Assembly (NCBI GenBank): GCA_009781125.1
Contig: WQYS01000134.1
Coordinates: 1 to 6,680, forward strand
DNA length: 6,680 bases
Source: Acidobacteriaceae bacterium
Lineage (GTDB): Bacteria; Acidobacteriota; Terriglobia; Terriglobales; Acidobacteriaceae
Direction: 5' to 3'
Positions 137-6,680 of this stretch are shown one piece after another. Made by a program: the position numbers and the translations under genes. How positions within the stretch are numbered: position 1 is the stretch's first letter; each line of letters starts with the position of its first letter. Under the pieces are notes generated by a model. That model ran no database searches and had not been told where the DNA came from. It was given only the letters and a program-made list of their open reading frames with translations.

Positions 137-811
137 ATGGAACTTTTCATTGATACCGCGATTGTTGCAGAGATTCGAGAGGCTCAAAGCTGGGGCATTC
201 TCGATGGCGTAACTACAAACCCAACCCACATTGCCAAAAGCGGACGTGAACTGGAAGACGTCCTCAAGGAGATCTTCTCCATCTGCCCCGGTCCGATCAG
301 CGTGGAGACGGTCAGCGCCGATGCTGAAGGAATCGTAGCGGAAGGGCGGGCCATAGCGGCTTTCCACAAGAATGCGGTTGTGAAGGTTCCTGTGACGATC
401 GAAGGGCTGAAAGCGGTGAAGCAGCTTTCCAGCGAAGGTATACGCACCAACGTGACCCTGTGCTTCAGCCCGCTACAGGCCTTTCTGGCGGCCAAAGCTG
501 GAGCAACCTATATCAGCCCGTTTGTCCACCGCAAGGAAGAGGCCGGGATGGACGGAATGGAGATGATTCGCCAGATTCGCGCGATCTACGACCGCTACGG
601 ATATAACACAAAGATTTTAGCGGCCAGCATTCGCACAGGTAAAGAAGTTCTCGACTGCCTCCTTGCCGGAGCCGACGTCTGCACTATGCCGCTCAATGTC
701 ATGGAATCGCTGTACAAGCACCTGATGACCGATGCGGGATTGAAGATGTTCATGGATGACTGGAAGAAAGTTCCTCCTACGGAACTGTTCGCCACCCTTA
801 CCCGTCGGTAA
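137..811 (+). CDS. talC: Transaldolase, small TalC/MipB/FSA-family type
   Basis: This is a class I (Schiff base) aldolase of the short transaldolase family. It is predicted to move a dihydroxyacetone unit between sugar phosphates in the cytoplasmic non-oxidative pentose phosphate pathway. From ATG 137 it has 224 residues, close to the usual 214-220. The N-terminus MELFIDTAIV aligns with family members starting MELYLDT. Visible landmarks are Asp6, the GVTTNPT segment (24-30), Lys83 in VVKVPVT (the Schiff-base lysine), NVTLCFS (105-111), SPFVHR (127-132) and LAAS (161-164). Fructose-6-phosphate aldolases carry Gln59 and Tyr131; this protein has Glu57 and Phe129 at those positions, the transaldolase pattern. 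The frame is open back to TTG 68 with ATGs at 110 and 119, but family alignment favours 137. No strong ribosome site precedes any of these starts; GGGA at 121-124 is weak and rather far. The gene converges on the two-component operon. Confidence 0.9.
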   Translation: MELFIDTAIVAEIREAQSWGILDGVTTNPTHIAKSGRELEDVLKEIFSICPGPISVETVSADAEGIVAEGRAIAAFHKNAVVKVPVTIEGLKAVKQLSSEGIRTNVTLCFSPLQAFLAAKAGATYISPFVHRKEEAGMDGMEMIRQIRAIYDRYGYNTKILAASIRTGKEVLDCLLAGADVCTMPLNVMESLYKHLMTDAGLKMFMDDWKKVPPTELFATLTRR

Positions 812-1020: not shown

Positions 1021-1686
1021 TCATATTTCTTCCGACTGCAAAATCCCGTGCGAGAGGCAAAAAACCACGGCTTCTGTGCGATCGGCGACCTCAAGCTTGG
1101 ACAGAAGGTTGTTCACATGATTCTTCACTGTGCTCTCGGAGATGCGAAATACGTTGGCGATCTCGCGATTGGTCAAGCCTTTGGCAACCAGCTTCAACAC
1201 TTCGTTCTCGCGATCGGTTAGCTGCTGGCGGCTCATGCCGCTGGCAAACTGCCGTTCGATCGCCGGAGAGGTCCACCGTTTGCCTGCGTAGACCGTTTCG
1301 ATAGCCTCTATCAGCATCTCGCGGCCGAGATCCTTCAGGATGTACCCTTGTGCACCCGCATCGAGCACCTGGAAAACCTCGTCCTCTGTCTGGTAGCTGG
1401 TCACGATGAGAATGCGCGGATTGGCGAACTCGGCGGCGATAGAGCGTACAACTTCGACGCCCCCCTTCTGCGGCATTCTCAGGTCGAGCAGAAGAACGTC
1501 AGGCTTTAGCTCTCGATAGAGCGCAATGGCTTCTGTTCCGTTGGAAGCTTCGCCTACGACCTCAAAACCGGGCTCATTTCCAATCAGGTTGCGGATGCCG
1601 ATACGGTAGACGAGATGATCGTCGGCAACCAGGATACGTATGTTGCGCGAAGGACGCTGTCTGGCGGAAAATCTGTCCGGTGTCAT
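1021..1686 (-). CDS. LuxR/NarL-family response regulator
   Basis: This is a DNA-binding response regulator, the cytoplasmic output half of the two-component pair. From ATG 1686 it has 221 residues. The receiver domain (about 16-130) shows acidic Asp22-Asp23 in LVADDH, the phospho-acceptor Asp68 in LLLDLRMP, Thr96 in ILIVTSY and Lys118 in YILKDL. A LuxR-type helix-turn-helix follows (about 154-214), with LTDRENEVL, then GLTNREIA and ISESTVKNHV, the recognition helix region. Its ATG overlaps the TGA of the kinase gene (ATGA), and AAGGG lies 7 bases upstream, so translation is probably coupled. An in-frame ATG at 1704 would add six residues but has a poorer context. Its targets are unknown. The neighbouring promoters, including the 7-7-7 inverted repeat before the receptor gene, are the first places to look. 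Confidence 0.93.
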   Translation of the reverse strand: MTPDRFSARQRPSRNIRILVADDHLVYRIGIRNLIGNEPGFEVVGEASNGTEAIALYRELKPDVLLLDLRMPQKGGVEVVRSIAAEFANPRILIVTSYQTEDEVFQVLDAGAQGYILKDLGREMLIEAIETVYAGKRWTSPAIERQFASGMSRQQLTDRENEVLKLVAKGLTNREIANVFRISESTVKNHVNNLLSKLEVADRTEAVVFCLSHGILQSEEI

Positions 1687-3113
1687 AGCGGTACCCTTAC
1701 ACATATTAAAGTTCTGCCCGGAGCGGATTGTATCTGCAACTCCGCATCGATAGCAGCCACGCGCTCGCGGATACCGATCAGACCGAAGTGTCCCTCCGCC
1801 GTGCCGGGCGCTCGATCTGGATCGAAGCCCTTCCCGTTATCTTCCACTTCCAGAGTAACCCCTCGCGGTTCGTACCGGAGGCCAACGCGAATTCTGGTGG
1901 CGGAGGCGTGACGAACAGCGTTGGTAATCGCCTCCTGCCCGATGCGGAACAGGTTGTTCACAATATTATAGGAAAGCGCGACAGGTTCTCCGCTCACCTG
2001 CTGTTCGATCTCTGTCGCCGTTGCCGCCTTCATCTGCTGAATGGAGTGAGCGAGCAGCACGTCAAGACGGTCGCTGCGCGAAGGCGCGCGCAGCATCTCA
2101 ATCGAGAGATGGGACTCGTTTCTGCTGTGACGGACAAGGTGCAACGCCTCCTTTAACAGCTTCTTTGCTTGCTCGGGACTGTGCTCCATCACCTGATCGG
2201 CGGCTTCCAACTCGAGCGAGATGCCGGCAAATCCCTGCGCCAGCGTGTCGTGAATGTCGCGGGCGATCTTGGCCCGTTCCTCGGCAATGGTCCTGTAGCG
2301 GCGATGCTCCTGACGCAAATATATATTCACCAGAATCAGGATCATAATCAGGAAGATTCCGGCAAGCAGCAGTATATGCGGGCCTGTCCACCAGGATGGG
2401 CCTTTGAGCAGTTGCAGGTCGTCCGGACCTCGCAGTTGCAGGGTGAAGGCTTCGCTGTGGCTTGCGCCTGGATCATGGCTGATGAACAAAACGCCGGTGA
2501 TGCGCAGCGTGGCTCCAGGCTGTATCAGATCTACGGGGATCTCCGCGTCCAGATCGTTGTCGGGCATGACAGCCGAGAAGCTTTGGTGCTCACTGCTCAG
2601 GTTGAGCCTTACGCCTGTCAGTCCAGCCGATGTGACTGACACAAGTTGAGCATCCATCTGCACCAGCGCAAGCTCGCTTTCGCCTTCGGCGGCCTGGTCG
2701 GACGTAATGGCCAGTGGCAGAGGCATCGCTCCTCCCCACAGGCGGCGCAAGCTGGCGTTGCGCACCTGCGGTCGCGGAGCAAGCACCATTTCGCCGGTCA
2801 CTTCCACCTCGTCGCCAAGCGCAATTCTGTTGGCATCGGACAAGTCTACGGATATTTCTGTTGCTCCTGTTCTGTCCTGGATCACCACAGAGTGGTGGTT
2901 CAGGATCACAATGCCGCGAATCATGACAGGCACAGCCTGCGAGGCCGCGCGCGTCTGCTCAATCGCTGACCAGATGGATTGCAGTTTGGCGTGCCCGGCA
3001 GACGGCATATCCGCAGCCTTTGCAGGCAATGCCACGACAGCGACCCACAGGGATAAGGTCATAACAAGCCTTTTGAGGCTCGGTGTGCGCGGGGCGTGGA
3101 AGTGCATTGACAT
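1683..3113 (-). CDS. Sensor histidine kinase, HisKA_3 type, with OB-fold-like periplasmic sensor
   Basis: This inner-membrane kinase is predicted to phosphorylate the downstream response regulator. From ATG 3113 it has 476 residues. In order they are: a signal peptide with basic n-region and hydrophobic core, with likely cleavage after ALPAKA (about residue 33); two OB-fold-like segments (about 60-141 and 149-236), the first with IRGIVILNHHSVVIQDRTG and LGDEVEVTG; one membrane helix (about 246-266); a HisKA_3 dimerisation domain with phospho-acceptor His288 in ARDIHDTLAQ; and an HATPase_c domain with N-box Glu394/Asn398 in GQEAITN, DNGKGFD (425-431) and GHFGLIGIRER (441-451). Its end overlaps the regulator start by ATGA. 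The frame extends to TTG 3140, but that codon lies upstream of the proposed -10. ATG 3107 is an alternative. ATG 3062 has a better ribosome site (AAAGG, 6-base spacing) but would lose the basic n-region. The ligand is unknown; pairing OB-like domains with a LuxR-type regulator is inferred to be extracytoplasmic sensing. Confidence 0.92.
   Translation of the reverse strand: MSMHFHAPRTPSLKRLVMTLSLWVAVVALPAKAADMPSAGHAKLQSIWSAIEQTRAASQAVPVMIRGIVILNHHSVVIQDRTGATEISVDLSDANRIALGDEVEVTGEMVLAPRPQVRNASLRRLWGGAMPLPLAITSDQAAEGESELALVQMDAQLVSVTSAGLTGVRLNLSSEHQSFSAVMPDNDLDAEIPVDLIQPGATLRITGVLFISHDPGASHSEAFTLQLRGPDDLQLLKGPSWWTGPHILLLAGIFLIMILILVNIYLRQEHRRYRTIAEERAKIARDIHDTLAQGFAGISLELEAADQVMEHSPEQAKKLLKEALHLVRHSRNESHLSIEMLRAPSRSDRLDVLLAHSIQQMKAATATEIEQQVSGEPVALSYNIVNNLFRIGQEAITNAVRHASATRIRVGLRYEPRGVTLEVEDNGKGFDPDRAPGTAEGHFGLIGIRERVAAIDAELQIQSAPGRTLICVRVPL
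1694..1699 (-). promoter_or_regulatory. Ribosome binding site of the response regulator
   Basis: On the minus strand TAAGGG lies inside the last codons of the kinase gene, 7 bases before ATG 1686. It decides the start: the upstream ATG at 1704 lies before this site. Confidence 0.6.
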
Positions 3114-3131
3114 GAATAAATCAGTTATGAT

Positions 3132-3160
3132 CTTATACAATCGATTATAAATCCTGTGAA
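3132..3160 (-). promoter_or_regulatory. Promoter of the kinase/regulator operon
   Basis: Reading the minus strand, TTCACA (3160-3155, 5/6 match to the sigma-70 -35) is followed after 17 bases by TATAAG (3137-3132, 5/6 match to -10). Transcription would begin near 3125, leaving a very short leader before ATG 3113 or 3107. The AATCGATT palindrome sits inside the spacer, a position where a bound protein would block RNA polymerase. Confidence 0.5.
3136..3149. promoter_or_regulatory. AATCGATT-centred palindrome, candidate operator 1
   Basis: The 14-mer TACAATCGATTATA is palindromic except for the third base pair from each end. It fits the central CG and flanking AA/TT of LacI-family operators (TGNAANCGNTTNCA), with one mismatch in each half. 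It lies in the region shared by the divergent kinase and jellyroll genes, between the -35 and -10 of the kinase promoter. A second AATCGATT site sits in the other divergent region at 4903-4916. The cognate regulator is not in the window. Confidence 0.4.
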
Positions 3161-3166
3161 CCTGTG

Positions 3167-3895
3167 ATGTGGAGACTGAAAAGACTCACCCCAAAAGCGA
3201 TTATTCTTGCTTTTCTTGGAACTATCATCGTTCTGGCCTCTCTTTGGTGGGTGCTGGGGGGGCATTTCTCCGGGTGGCGAGGGTATCGAGACCATCGCCT
3301 GAGCCGACTCGATGGCTGGCACTCCATCTCGGGCAACTGGTCGCTCAGCAACAACGTGATATCGAACGCGCACTATGGACGGGGCGACATGCTGATTGCC
3401 TCCTCTTTCCGCGGTAACAACTACAAGATCGCCGCCGACCTCCGTTTCGATCTGCTTTTTCCGGAGACGCATTACGGCGACGCCGGTCTTGTCATTCGCG
3501 TCAGCGATCCGCAGCGAGGCGTGGACTCTTATCGCGGCTACTATGCCGGACTGCGCCCCGACAGTCAGACGCTGGTCCTGGGGCGGGCTTCCTACGACTG
3601 GCTTACCCTCAAAGAGTTGCCGCTTGCGGTTCCTGTCGCTAAAAATGAGTGGTACCACATCGAACTCTCCGCTCGCGGATGCGACCTGTCTGTTGAAGCA
3701 AGACCTATTCCAGACGGGCCGCCAACGCGAATCGATTACCACGACGCGAACTGCCTCACGGATGGAATGGGAGGCCTGCGTTCTTTCTACACACAGGCTT
3801 CGTGGCGTTCTGTGACGATGACCCTCTCTGATCGCGCCAATGGGTCTGCACTCAGGGGTTCGCAACCCAGTGGCTCGCCGAATGCTGGTCAATAA
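3167..3895 (+). CDS. Membrane-anchored jellyroll (LamG/concanavalin-like) protein
   Basis: I do not recognise a named family. From ATG 3167 the product has 242 residues. A short basic N-terminus is followed by one hydrophobic segment (about 11-30) and no signal peptidase site, so it is probably anchored in the inner membrane with the rest in the periplasm. The body (about 48-221) is rich in beta strands and aromatic residues and matches the rhythm of LamG/DUF1080-like jellyrolls: GW then SGNW (50-58), GDAGLVIR (104-111), YYAGL (125-129), NEWYHIEL (160-167) and a closing GLRSFYTQASW stretch. Such folds usually bind carbohydrate. Cys172 and Cys196 could form a disulfide. GTG at 3164 directly before the ATG is an equally possible start; no good ribosome site is visible. 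It is divergent from the kinase operon across about 50 bases, suggesting shared control. Its 3' end overlaps that of the opposing binding-protein gene by 44 bases. Confidence 0.75.
   Translation: MWRLKRLTPKAIILAFLGTIIVLASLWWVLGGHFSGWRGYRDHRLSRLDGWHSISGNWSLSNNVISNAHYGRGDMLIASSFRGNNYKIAADLRFDLLFPETHYGDAGLVIRVSDPQRGVDSYRGYYAGLRPDSQTLVLGRASYDWLTLKELPLAVPVAKNEWYHIELSARGCDLSVEARPIPDGPPTRIDYHDANCLTDGMGGLRSFYTQASWRSVTMTLSDRANGSALRGSQPSGSPNAGQ
3849..3872. terminator. Hairpin in the overlapping 3' ends of two convergent genes
   Basis: GGGTT (3856-3860) pairs with AACCC (3864-3868) around a 3-base loop, and CACT (3849-3852) pairs with AGTG (3869-3872), leaving a 3-base bulge. It lies inside coding sequence of the jellyroll gene and covers the stop codon of the binding-protein gene. 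No T-tract follows. There is no intergenic room for another terminator here. Confidence 0.25.
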
Positions 3896-4796
3896 TCGTT
3901 ACGGAAATCTGCGTGCTCCATCTGCCGCCGTGCTTAGCATCCAGGGCCTTTTTCATGGCTTCTATGGCGGCTTTTCCCATCTCCTGCGGATTGCTTACAA
4001 CCAGCGCATCGATTTTTCCCTGAAGCAGGGCATCGAACTCGTCGCGCTCGCCAGAGATTCCAATCAGCACCGGACGCCTGCGTGCCTGTGAGTTGAAGGT
4101 AGATGCGGCCGCATGGGTAGCGAACTCGTCGGTGGTGAAGATTCCGCCCAGATTCGGGTGTTCAGAAAGCAAATCCAGCGTAGCCTGGCGAGCCCTGGCC
4201 CAATCGGAGAGTCCGTACTTCACATCCACAAGTTTGATATGCGGCGTGCGCGCGATCTCTTCGGCAAAGCTCTCCTCAATACGCGAACTGCTCTCCACCG
4301 TGGGACTGACGCCGACAATTCCTATCTCGCCCTTTCCGCCCATCAAAGCGGCAAACCGCCTGGCGGCCAGCCGTCCCGCTTCTTTTACATCCCATCCCAC
4401 AAAGGCGTCAAAATCTTCAGCCGCCAGCGCGATGGGCGATCCGATTACCACCACTGCGATTCCCGCCTTCTTGGCTTTGCGCAGTACGGAGGCAAGTACA
4501 AGCTGGTGCGAAGGCGCTACGACGATTCCCTGAACATGATTGGCGATGGCGTCTTCGACCATTTGTTCCTGCTCCGCATAGTCGGTGACCTCCTGCGGAG
4601 CCTCGAATTGCACCTGGATTCCAGCGGCATCGGCCTCAGCTTTTACCTGATGATTGAAGACCTCCCAGTAGTGCAGACCGCCCGCCGGGGCAATTACGGC
4701 GACAGTTGGCGGCTGTTTTTGCCGGCATCCTGCGATCATCGGCACGGCAAGGAGCAGGACAACGTGTAGCAGAGTCTTTCTATATCGAATCTTCAA
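3852..4796 (-). CDS. Lipoprotein sugar-binding protein (RbsB/LacI-type periplasmic fold)
   Basis: This is a periplasmic-binding-protein type I domain on a lipid anchor, predicted to bind a sugar at the periplasmic face of a membrane. From TTG 4796 it has 314 residues. The N-terminus KIRYRK plus a hydrophobic core ends in lipobox IAGC with Cys24, an ideal 23-residue lipoprotein signal. The rest shows the family's repeating pattern: TVAVIAP (31-37), HYWEVFN (42-48), QGIVVAPS (89-96), VGWDVKEAG (133-141), GEIGIVG (156-162), GIFTTDEFA (218-226) and LQGKIDALVVSNPQEMG (258-274). There is no DNA-binding helix-turn-helix, so it is not a LacI regulator. The frame is open to TTG 4850, but a near-consensus promoter starts transcription near 4846, which rules that start out. 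TTG 4835 would leave only an 11-base leader. No permease or ATPase gene lies next to it, so it may deliver its ligand to an unlinked transporter or report it to the sensor kinase. Confidence 0.87.
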   Translation of the reverse strand: MKIRYRKTLLHVVLLLAVPMIAGCRQKQPPTVAVIAPAGGLHYWEVFNHQVKAEADAAGIQVQFEAPQEVTDYAEQEQMVEDAIANHVQGIVVAPSHQLVLASVLRKAKKAGIAVVVIGSPIALAAEDFDAFVGWDVKEAGRLAARRFAALMGGKGEIGIVGVSPTVESSSRIEESFAEEIARTPHIKLVDVKYGLSDWARARQATLDLLSEHPNLGGIFTTDEFATHAAASTFNSQARRRPVLIGISGERDEFDALLQGKIDALVVSNPQEMGKAAIEAMKKALDAKHGGRWSTQISVTIIDQHSASHWVANP

Positions 4797-4902: not shown

Positions 4903-4916
4903 TCTAATCGATTGCA
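4903..4916. promoter_or_regulatory. AATCGATT-centred palindrome, candidate operator 2
   Basis: The 14-mer TCTAATCGATTGCA matches the LacI-family consensus TGNAANCGNTTNCA with a single mismatch (C for G at position 2). It shares the AATCGATT core with the site at 3136-3149 and lies in the divergent region between the binding-protein and receptor genes. Its right half runs into the inverted repeat at 4912-4932. Confidence 0.45.
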
Positions 4917-4965: not shown

Positions 4966-6680
4966 GTGCGGTTTTCAAGTCGTATTTTGCAGTGTTTAAG
5001 TCTGATGATAGGGCTGGCAGTGATCCATCCCTGCGTTTTACATGCTCAGTTTCTCGACCAGGGTGGCCTGACGGGTGTAGTTCAGGACGCTACCGGAGCG
5101 GTCATTCCCGGAGCTGTGGTCACGCTGACCAACCCCGCGACGTCTTTGACGTTATCCACCAAAGCCGATACCAGCGGAATGTTTGTATTCTCGCCCATTA
5201 AGATTGGCCAATACTCGGTGACCGCGTCCGCCGATGGCTTCCAGAAGACGACGCAGCAGAACATCACCGTATTTGTGGGCCAGCGGTCCAGCGTTACGAT
5301 CACCTTGAAGACCGGCTCGGTCAACGAGGTCGTAACCGTCACCGACGCTCCGCCTTTGTTGCAGACACAAGAGAGTTCCACCGGGCAGGTCTTCACCATC
5401 AAGGAGCTTGACAACACGCCGCTGAATGGGCGCAACGTCATGTTTATGGCTCAGATGGCGGCAGGTGTGGCCGCCACGCCTGGATCGCGCGCCAAGGGCA
5501 CGGGCGACTTCAGCGCCAACGGCATGCGCGCCGAGCAGAATAACTACGTTCTGGATGGCGTTGACAACAACGCCGTGTCGGTGGACTTCCTGGGCGGCGC
5601 CGGCTTCATGATCAATCCTCCGCCAGACGCTCTGGAGCAGTTCAAGATTTCGACCTCCAGCTATAGCGCCGAGTTTGGACGCTCCGCTGGAGCTGTCGTC
5701 ATAGCCAGCCTCAAGTCGGGCACCAACGATATCCACGGCTCGGTGTGGGAGTACCTTCGCAACGACTATCTTGATGCGAGAGACTGGCTCCTGGCCCCGG
5801 GGGCGCCCAGCGCCGCCTACCGTCAGAATCTGTTCGGAGCTGCGCTGGGGCTTCCCATTCGTAAGAATCATCTCTTCTTCTTCGGCGATATACAGGCTAA
5901 CCGGATCATGATCGACCAGCCGCAAGGCACGGCAACCGTGCCGACGCTGTTAGAGAGAACCGGAGACTTGTCGGAGCTGCTGAATGGCGCCAATCTCGGC
6001 GGTAACGCGGTAACGTTGTATCAGCCGGGGAACAGCCCTAATCTGACACCGTATCAGTCAGGGAACAGCGCCACGATGGCACTGCTGTCCAACCCGTCTT
6101 GTGCGACTCCTAATACGATTGCACCCACTGCTAGCGGTCAGGTGCTGGGACAGAATGTTCTGTGCTCGGGTACGGGTTCGTACAGCGGGTTGGCGGAGAA
6201 GGTCCTGAATATGTATCCGAAGCCTAATGTGCCGGTGCAGGTTGGGGCCAAAAATACCTATCTTGCAAATAACAACTACAGCTACAGCCTGCGGCAGCCG
6301 CAGAACACGGTTCAGTGGGACACGCGCCTGGACTGGAATGTCAACGCCAAAGATCAGGCCTTTGCCCGCTTCAGCTATATCAATCAGCGCGGAAACAATG
6401 AAGGTCCTATGGGGCCGATCCTGGATGGCGGCGGCGGCAACGGAAATCCGGATATAAGCGGCAAGATGCTTAACTACGGCAATAACTTTGTTCTGAGCGA
6501 GACTCATATCTTCAATCCCAACGTGGTTAATGAGTTTCGTTTTGCCTACAACTATGGCAAGTTCTCGATCCTGAATCCCGGCTACGATAGCAACGATGCT
6601 GCGGATCTGGGATTTGGCGGAATACCCTACGGGCCTGACTGGCCTATGAACGGCGGTATGCCCAGCACTACGATCAGCGG
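4966..6680 (+). CDS. Oar-like TonB-dependent receptor with carboxypeptidase-regulatory-like domain (partial)
   Basis: This outer-membrane receptor is predicted to import a ligand too large for porins, probably a carbohydrate given its neighbours, powered by TonB. The gene is intact from GTG 4966 and runs off the window after about 571 residues, roughly half of the usual 1,000-1,200. A signal peptide (1-27, cleavage near LHA|QF) is followed by a carboxypeptidase-regulatory-like domain (about 34-117: GGLTGVVQDATGAVIPGAVV, then GMFVFSPIKIGQYSVTASADGF). Next comes the plug domain (about 140-260, with TPLNGRN, FSANGMRAEQNNYVLDGVDN, FKISTSSYSAEFGRSAGAVV and KSGTNDIHGSVWEYLRN). The first barrel strands follow, including FGAALGLPIRKNHLFFFGD and VQWDTRLDWNVNAKDQAFARFSY. 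Asn/Gly-rich stretches such as 487-495 are probably exposed loops. A consensus ribosome site and the dyads at 4903-4932 precede it. It is divergent from the binding-protein gene. The substrate cannot be read from the sequence. Confidence 0.93.
   Translation, partial: MRFSSRILQCLSLMIGLAVIHPCVLHAQFLDQGGLTGVVQDATGAVIPGAVVTLTNPATSLTLSTKADTSGMFVFSPIKIGQYSVTASADGFQKTTQQNITVFVGQRSSVTITLKTGSVNEVVTVTDAPPLLQTQESSTGQVFTIKELDNTPLNGRNVMFMAQMAAGVAATPGSRAKGTGDFSANGMRAEQNNYVLDGVDNNAVSVDFLGGAGFMINPPPDALEQFKISTSSYSAEFGRSAGAVVIASLKSGTNDIHGSVWEYLRNDYLDARDWLLAPGAPSAAYRQNLFGAALGLPIRKNHLFFFGDIQANRIMIDQPQGTATVPTLLERTGDLSELLNGANLGGNAVTLYQPGNSPNLTPYQSGNSATMALLSNPSCATPNTIAPTASGQVLGQNVLCSGTGSYSGLAEKVLNMYPKPNVPVQVGAKNTYLANNNYSYSLRQPQNTVQWDTRLDWNVNAKDQAFARFSYINQRGNNEGPMGPILDGGGGNGNPDISGKMLNYGNNFVLSETHIFNPNVVNEFRFAYNYGKFSILNPGYDSNDAADLGFGGIPYGPDWPMNGGMPSTTIS

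What the first reader, a model, noticed from the sequence alone, without database searches (positions are those of the whole stretch)
1021..4796. Orphan sugar-binding lipoprotein beside a sensor kinase operon: possible binding-protein-gated two-component system
The window holds an RbsB-type lipoprotein with no ABC permease or ATPase gene next to it. Instead it sits next to a HisKA_3 kinase, a LuxR-type regulator and an anchored jellyroll protein. Established precedents for a periplasmic sugar-binding protein acting on a kinase are ChvE with VirA and XylFII with LytS. Here the kinase has an OB-fold-like sensor rather than the domains used in those cases, so it would be a different architecture. 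The functional link is inference from gene proximity, shared operator-like palindromes and matching cell compartments.
Basis: partly seen in the sequence, partly recalled or inferred. Interest (0 to 1): 0.72.

Follow-up and report, generated by a model that had tools for sequence, protein, structure and literature searches.

The report
Sugar sensor with detachable binding parts
In this soil bacterium a sugar-binding lipoprotein without a transporter, a carbohydrate-binding protein, a sensor kinase and a gene regulator are encoded side by side, and because relatives often carry two of these parts joined in one protein, they probably work together as one sugar receptor.

Summary
In detail: an RbsB-type lipoprotein (SBP), an anchored jellyroll protein (JR), a HisKA_3 kinase (HK) and a NarL/LuxR-type regulator (RR), with no ABC gene among the six genes of the window. 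Comparison strengthens the guess. In 34 of 200 genomes from the family of the closest relative found, these parts cluster (46 loci). With the window and five more loci, 52 were examined: in 45 JR is fused to the kinase (TM-JR-OB-OB-TM-kinase), usually with the SBP gene overlapping just upstream. The window is a split form with the JR segment inverted between SBP and HK. All 52 JR+OB kinases have an adjacent SBP; 8 JR kinases without OB (one clade, so about one event) and 29 OB-only stretches have none. No CUT2 permease match lies within 50 kb of the 46 loci, and 31 of 40 genomes have none. JR is CBM66-like; the sensor is two confidently modelled OB folds. TonB receptors and GH127 genes lie nearby. 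The palindromes resemble LacI-type operators, not sites of this regulator. Best reading: a three-component sugar receptor for glycan-use genes, a new architecture of a known kind. Physical gating, ligand and target genes are untested.

The parts
1021..1704 (-). RR: NarL/LuxR-type response regulator
   Evidence: Response_reg 1.4e-26 and GerE 2.3e-20; RR match near 48 of 52 JR+OB loci
1683..3062 (-). HK: sensor kinase, signal-like N-terminus, two periplasmic OB folds, one TM, HisKA_3, HATPase_c (ORF open to 3140; start chosen from the 459-aa database copy P0001)
2391..3011 (-). stretch modelled as the tandem OB-fold sensor
3164..3895 (+). JR: membrane-anchored CBM66-like jellyroll protein (first ATG at 3167); in most relatives fused to the N-terminus of the kinase
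3852..4796 (-). SBP: RbsB-type (Peripla_BP_4) lipoprotein, tail to tail with JR and overlapping it by 44 bases
   Evidence: adjacent in 52 of 52 JR+OB loci
4966..6680 (+). start of a TonB-dependent receptor (CarboxypepD_reg, plug, OMP_b-brl_4), divergent from SBP, runs off the window
   Evidence: TonB receptor match within 3 kb at 41 of 52 loci
4903..4916 (.). LacI-type operator-like palindrome between SBP and TonB receptor, one mismatch
   Evidence: consensus recalled
3136..3149 (.). weaker palindrome between HK and JR, two mismatches by eye (a level that chance reaches often)
   Evidence: consensus recalled
137..811 (+). fructose-6-phosphate-aldolase/transaldolase-like gene; membership of the system not shown
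   Evidence: TIGR00875 above its cut-off

Best explanation
SBP, JR, HK and RR are one sugar-sensing three-component system that controls a glycan-use locus headed by the adjacent TonB-dependent receptor. Shown by sequence and comparison: the four genes are a recurring unit; JR is usually the N-terminal part of the kinase's outer half; the SBP gene usually overlaps the fused kinase gene on the same strand; no CUT2 permease match lies near; the kinase sensor is a pair of OB folds next to the membrane. Inferred: the SBP binds a sugar taken in or released by the locus and docks on the JR/OB part; the CBM66-like JR gives a second carbohydrate contact or holds the SBP; the OB pair passes the change through the membrane to the kinase; the phosphorylated regulator switches on SBP, TonB receptor and hydrolase genes, on top of LacI-type control. 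In the window's lineage the receptor has come apart: JR is now a separate anchored subunit whose gene lies inverted between SBP and HK. For part of the family the ligands are probably fragments of arabinofuranose-containing glycans; the window's own ligand is not predicted.
For: Same block and layout in L001 (SBP 57, JR 51, HK 60, RR 74% identity). 46 JR+OB loci in 34 of 200 genomes, five more from the phylum sample. SBP adjacent in 52 of 52; RR near 48 of 52; TonB receptor within 3 kb at 41. JR fused to kinase at 45 of 52 (one of these, L241, has a frame break between OB and kinase). ORF overlap of SBP and fused kinase at all 36 loci measured, exactly four bases at 17. No SBP at 8 JR kinases without OB or at 29 OB-only stretches. 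Permease: 0 of 19 matches within 50 kb; 31 of 40 genomes without a match; 12 of 14 controls positive. OB pair; JR as CBM66 relative and as accessory domain of GH54 enzymes. GH127 genes: 23 of 128 matches within 15 kb of a locus, about 1 expected.
Against: No binding, ligand or expression data. Adjacent SBP and kinase genes need not be linked: two P. aeruginosa cases proved negative (PMC11113362, passages). The 8 OB-less kinases are one clade, so the OB/SBP co-occurrence is about one event. SBP-JR co-divergence follows gene order and may reflect linkage. Other PF13407 proteins occur in all 40 genomes searched (1 to 24 matches each), so transporter-less SBPs may have other roles there. The window shows no glycoside hydrolase.
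Confidence: 0.72

Rival explanations
1. The SBP serves uptake rather than sensing: as a lipoprotein it hands sugar to or from the TonB receptor, or holds it in the periplasm. The kinase senses glycan directly through JR/OB, and the genes sit together because they are used together.
For: SBP is a lipoprotein beside a TonB receptor at most loci. Two OB-only kinases (L253, L254) and the 8 JR kinases without OB have TonB receptor and RR matches but no SBP, so such kinases can work without one.
Against: The same loci show that a TonB receptor alone does not bring an SBP; the SBP goes with the JR+OB kinase in 52 of 52, also at 6 loci where no TonB receptor match was seen. The SBP gene overlaps the kinase gene, not the receptor gene.
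Confidence: 0.15
2. The SBP works with an ABC transporter encoded elsewhere in the genome, and its place beside the kinase is only shared regulation.
For: 9 of 40 genomes do have CUT2 permease matches. The window's own genome could not be searched.
Against: 31 of 40 genomes with JR matches have no CUT2 permease match, the relative G001 among them; none of 19 matches lies within 50 kb of a locus. Genomes may be incomplete, and ATPases were not searched.
Confidence: 0.07
3. The SBP has lost or changed sugar binding and is a structural subunit of the receptor, or binds something other than sugar.
For: Ligand-site residues were not tested. SBP divergence tracks JR most closely.
Against: The best solved relatives are mostly named as sugar-binding proteins, and sugar-active enzymes lie around the loci.
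Confidence: 0.06

Closest known systems
CuaD-CuaS-CuaR of Ruminiclostridium cellulolyticum (three-component system; PMC10384115, passages read)
   Same: Lipoprotein SBP gene beside kinase and regulator genes; SBP needed for signalling; serves sugar uptake genes
   Different: The paper reports an ABC importer (CuaABC) as its target and an extracytosolic part of CuaS that it does not describe as CBM or OB; CuaS is a class-I kinase with HAMP. Here: HisKA_3 kinase, OB pair, CBM66-like module, TonB receptor
XylFII-LytS, TorT-TorS, LuxP-LuxQ (PMC6321045, passages read); ChvE-VirA (recalled)
   Same: Periplasmic binding protein acting on the outer domain of a sensor kinase; XylFII is a sequence relative of the window SBP (5xsd, E 1.3e-11)
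   Different: Their sensor domains are not known to be tandem OB folds with a CBM66-like module (recalled, not compared here)
BT1754, Bacteroides hybrid two-component system (PMC3404733, passages read; structure entry 2x7x 'sensor protein' found by the window SBP, E 2.8e-9; that 2x7x is BT1754 is recalled)
   Same: RbsB-like sugar domain signalling through a kinase to a glycan-use locus
   Different: All in one polypeptide with its regulator; here the SBP and RR are separate and JR/OB lie between
CBM66 of Bacillus subtilis levanase
   Different: CBM66 is part of an enzyme; JR is anchored in the membrane as a part or partner of a kinase; binding residues were not compared

Membership tests
SBP-dependent (three-component) sensor systems | SBP gene beside a kinase/regulator pair, as a recurring unit | tested here: met
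   52 of 52 JR+OB loci have an SBP within 1.5 kb, 48 of 52 an RR
SBP-dependent (three-component) sensor systems | Kinase with a periplasmic sensor domain | tested here: met
   Signal-like N-terminus, OB pair, TM
SBP-dependent (three-component) sensor systems | SBP physically binds the sensor and changes kinase output | not testable with these tools
   No complex prediction or experiment available
CUT2 ABC importer binding protein | Linked PF02653 permease | tested here: not met
   0 of 19 permease matches within 50 kb of 46 loci; 31 of 40 genomes without one; the window's genome itself is not held
Bacteroides hybrid two-component systems | Sensor, kinase and regulator in one polypeptide | tested here: not met
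   SBP, HK and RR are separate genes in the window
CBM66 | Fold and sequence similarity | tested here: met
   Fold match made on the JR of fused relative P0121, sequence match on a profile that includes the window JR; the window JR was not modelled
CBM66 | Fructan-binding residues and ligand | not tested
   Residues not compared
3-keto-disaccharide hydrolase domain (PF06439) | Pfam score above cut-off | tested here: inconclusive
   Window JR 25.0 bits against 26.8; several relatives score above it
OB fold | OB barrels | tested here: met
   Model and matches for both halves; PF01336 in some relatives, below its cut-off in L132

The most novel reading that the evidence does not exclude
A modular two-input glycan receptor: the CBM66-like module reads polymer or oligosaccharide, the tethered SBP reads released sugar, and both act on a tandem-OB relay in one kinase, so that full output needs both. 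In some lineages the polymer-reading half was cut out by an inversion and works as a detachable subunit, which would allow mixing between paralogous receptors.
Probability: 0.2. Interest if true: 0.78.

Novelty: new variant of a known kind. Interest (0 to 1): 0.62.

Why it matters
How Acidobacteria of soils sense plant glycans is little known (recalled). This would be a recurring receptor family, 46 loci in 34 of 200 sampled genomes and up to four per genome, placed beside TonB receptors and glycoside hydrolases, playing the part that hybrid two-component systems play in Bacteroides. It adds a CBM66-like/tandem-OB outer half to the SBP-linked kinases. The natural fused, split and OB-less forms make the question 'which module does the SBP talk to' directly testable.

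Tried and rejected
ABC partner: sought with the CUT2 permease family and not found near the loci; ATPases were not searched. Palindromes as sites of this regulator: rejected. Exact matches to the LacI-type consensus (recalled) occur upstream of 11 of 52 SBPs (12 sites) and 13 of 63 TonB receptor matches (14 sites), against a mean of 0.0 in 40 shuffles; the two sets overlap where the genes diverge, and 41 of 52 SBPs have no exact site. Plain AATCGATT is upstream of only 2 of 52 SBPs, the window included.

A 1052-aa ORF in L157 looked like an SBP-JR-HK fusion; it is an over-extended frame, the SBP being in another frame. The Fisher p printed is not used: the OB-less kinases are one clade (support 0.998), and that call lists 9 OB-less rows because L126's kinase was paired with two JR matches; 8 is right. 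SBP-JR co-divergence is not taken as proof of contact, because the correlations fall with gene order. The kinase tree has a weak root (0.348), and L119 (split) pairs with L150 (fused), so the number and direction of splits are open.

Fold lists: no known SBP-kinase sensor is among the rows shown; this is no evidence. Plasmid collection with the SBP: 74 records, all under 60% identity. Literature searches listed no paper whose title or abstract start describes this system; the library lacks most subscription journals. PMC3174227 (passages only) does not mention it in those passages. Occurrence outside Acidobacteriota was not tested.

Full report
WHAT IS THERE. The window holds six genes: an aldolase-like enzyme, RR, HK, JR, SBP and the start of a TonB-dependent receptor. 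None matched an ABC permease or ATPase family. JR has one hydrophobic anchor near its N-terminus; HK has a signal-like N-terminus and one clear TM before the kinase core. The window's own genome is not held.

CONSERVATION. The one scan of genome contigs gave 80 loci; only L001, from an Acidobacteriaceae MAG, matched the sensor part as well as the kinase part. L001 has the same block in the same layout (SBP 57, JR 51, HK 60, RR 74% identity) with a TonB receptor after RR. JR was then searched in 200 genomes of the family of L001's genome: 40 matched, 60 places. All 60 places lie in stretches read here, annotated with profiles built here. 34 of the 200 genomes hold at least one JR+OB kinase locus, 46 loci in all. 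An OB profile in 396 genomes of the phylum matched 41; the stretches fetched from it gave five more JR+OB loci. With the window the total is 52.

FUSION AND FISSION. At 45 of the 52 loci JR is fused to the N-terminus of the kinase, in proteins of roughly 700-800 aa; in L241 the frame is broken between OB and kinase. In a fused relative the order is TM, JR, two OB folds, TM, kinase. At the 36 fused loci measured the SBP ORF lies just upstream on the same strand and overlaps the kinase ORF, by exactly four bases at 17; longer overlaps depend on mechanical start choice. Seven loci are split. In L144 JR and HK are separate but in tandem behind the SBP. In the window, L001, L115, L116, L117 and L119, JR is on the opposite strand between SBP and HK, the layout expected if the JR segment were inverted in place. 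In the kinase tree the window's clade is nested among fused forms (0.893 for WIN, L001, L115, L116, L117), though the root is weak and L119 pairs with a fused member. A protein that is part of the kinase in most relatives is probably still its partner here.

WHO GOES WITH THE SBP. An SBP lies within 1.5 kb at 52 of 52 JR+OB kinases. The eight JR kinases without OB have none, but they form one clade, so this is about one event. The 29 fetched OB-only stretches have neither JR nor SBP matches; several are cut by contig ends; two (L253, L254) have TonB receptor and RR. So the SBP goes with the JR+OB combination, not with the receptor gene or either module alone. RR is near 48 of 52. A TonB receptor match is within 3 kb at 41, farther at 5, not seen at 6. 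Over 48 loci, tree distances of SBP correlate with JR 0.90, OB 0.86, KIN 0.80, RR 0.74; the partial correlation with JR given the rest is 0.53 (0.54 in fused loci), with OB 0.11. That would fit SBP-JR contact but also mirrors gene order.

NO TRANSPORTER. The CUT2 permease family gave 19 matches in 9 of 40 genomes (12 of 14 control genomes positive), none within 50 kb of the 46 loci. PF13407 proteins are present in all 40 genomes, 1 to 24 matches each, so SBP-like proteins, LacI regulators probably included, are common there.

SETTING. Among 175 of 192 listed neighbour proteins, after TPR repeats the commonest families shown are GH127 beta-L-arabinofuranosidase (9 of 82 and 6 of 93), then sulfatase (5 and 4) and arabinofuranosidase C-terminal domain (3 and 2), with GH43 in 3 of the first set and GH32 in 2 of the second. 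Neighbours in the window's closer relatives include GH116, TPR and UnbV_ASPIC proteins (L115), GH43, TPR and a GDSL hydrolase (L001), and a GH95 match (L117). Of 128 GH127 matches in the 34 genomes, 23 (22 genes) lie within 15 kb of a locus where about 1 is expected by length. This points to arabinofuranose-containing glycans for part of the family; the window itself shows no hydrolase.

OPERATORS. The palindrome at 4903-4916 fits the recalled LacI-type operator with one mismatch; that at 3136-3149 with two by eye, which chance reaches often. Exact sites are enriched: 12 at 11 of 52 SBPs and 14 at 13 of 63 TonB receptor matches, mean 0.0 in 40 shuffles. Ten genomes searched have 11 to 25 Peripla_BP_1 matches each, a family that covers LacI regulators and also some SBPs. 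A LacI-type layer of control is likely, and the palindromes do not by themselves tie SBP to kinase.

STANDING. The kind is known: CuaDSR (PMC10384115), XylFII-LytS, TorT-TorS and LuxP-LuxQ (PMC6321045), BT1754 (PMC3404733). So is the warning: kinase and SBP genes side by side in P. aeruginosa that proved unlinked (PMC11113362). All four were read as passages only. What goes beyond proximity here is the recurrence, the gene overlap and the JR-HK fusion. The searches named under Tried and rejected listed no paper on this system. Contact, ligand and target genes remain to be shown.

Noticed in passing
L126:9822-12191 and L164:8070-10196: GH54-type arabinofuranosidases carrying two tandem JR (CBM66-like) domains at the C-terminus; the same domain type serves enzymes and kinases.
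   Followed up: partly
L242-L269, L274: Large family of Acidobacterial proteins with one to several OB pairs in tandem, many over 650 aa and some with receiver-like matches, mostly without match to the HK core profile used here; function not examined.
   Followed up: partly
L126, L134, L139, L151, L159, L160, L161, L163: JR kinases without OB pair and without SBP, one clade, with RR and TonB receptor matches nearby: a possible direct glycan-sensing form.
   Followed up: partly
window 3852-3895; L115:8912-8944; L116:1974-2006: SBP and JR genes overlap tail to tail by some 30-45 bases in the window and two relatives.
   Followed up: no
upstream of SBP and TonB receptor genes, e.g. L118, L120, L121: LacI-type operators, sometimes two or three in a row, suggest LacI control of TonB receptor loci.
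   Followed up: partly
L115:3868-7896, L116:4732-6630: UnbV_ASPIC/FG-GAP proteins beside the cluster in two close relatives of the window.
   Followed up: no
L241 (G532): JR-OB and kinase parts in different frames with a stop between; either a broken gene or a sequencing error; not mended.
   Followed up: no
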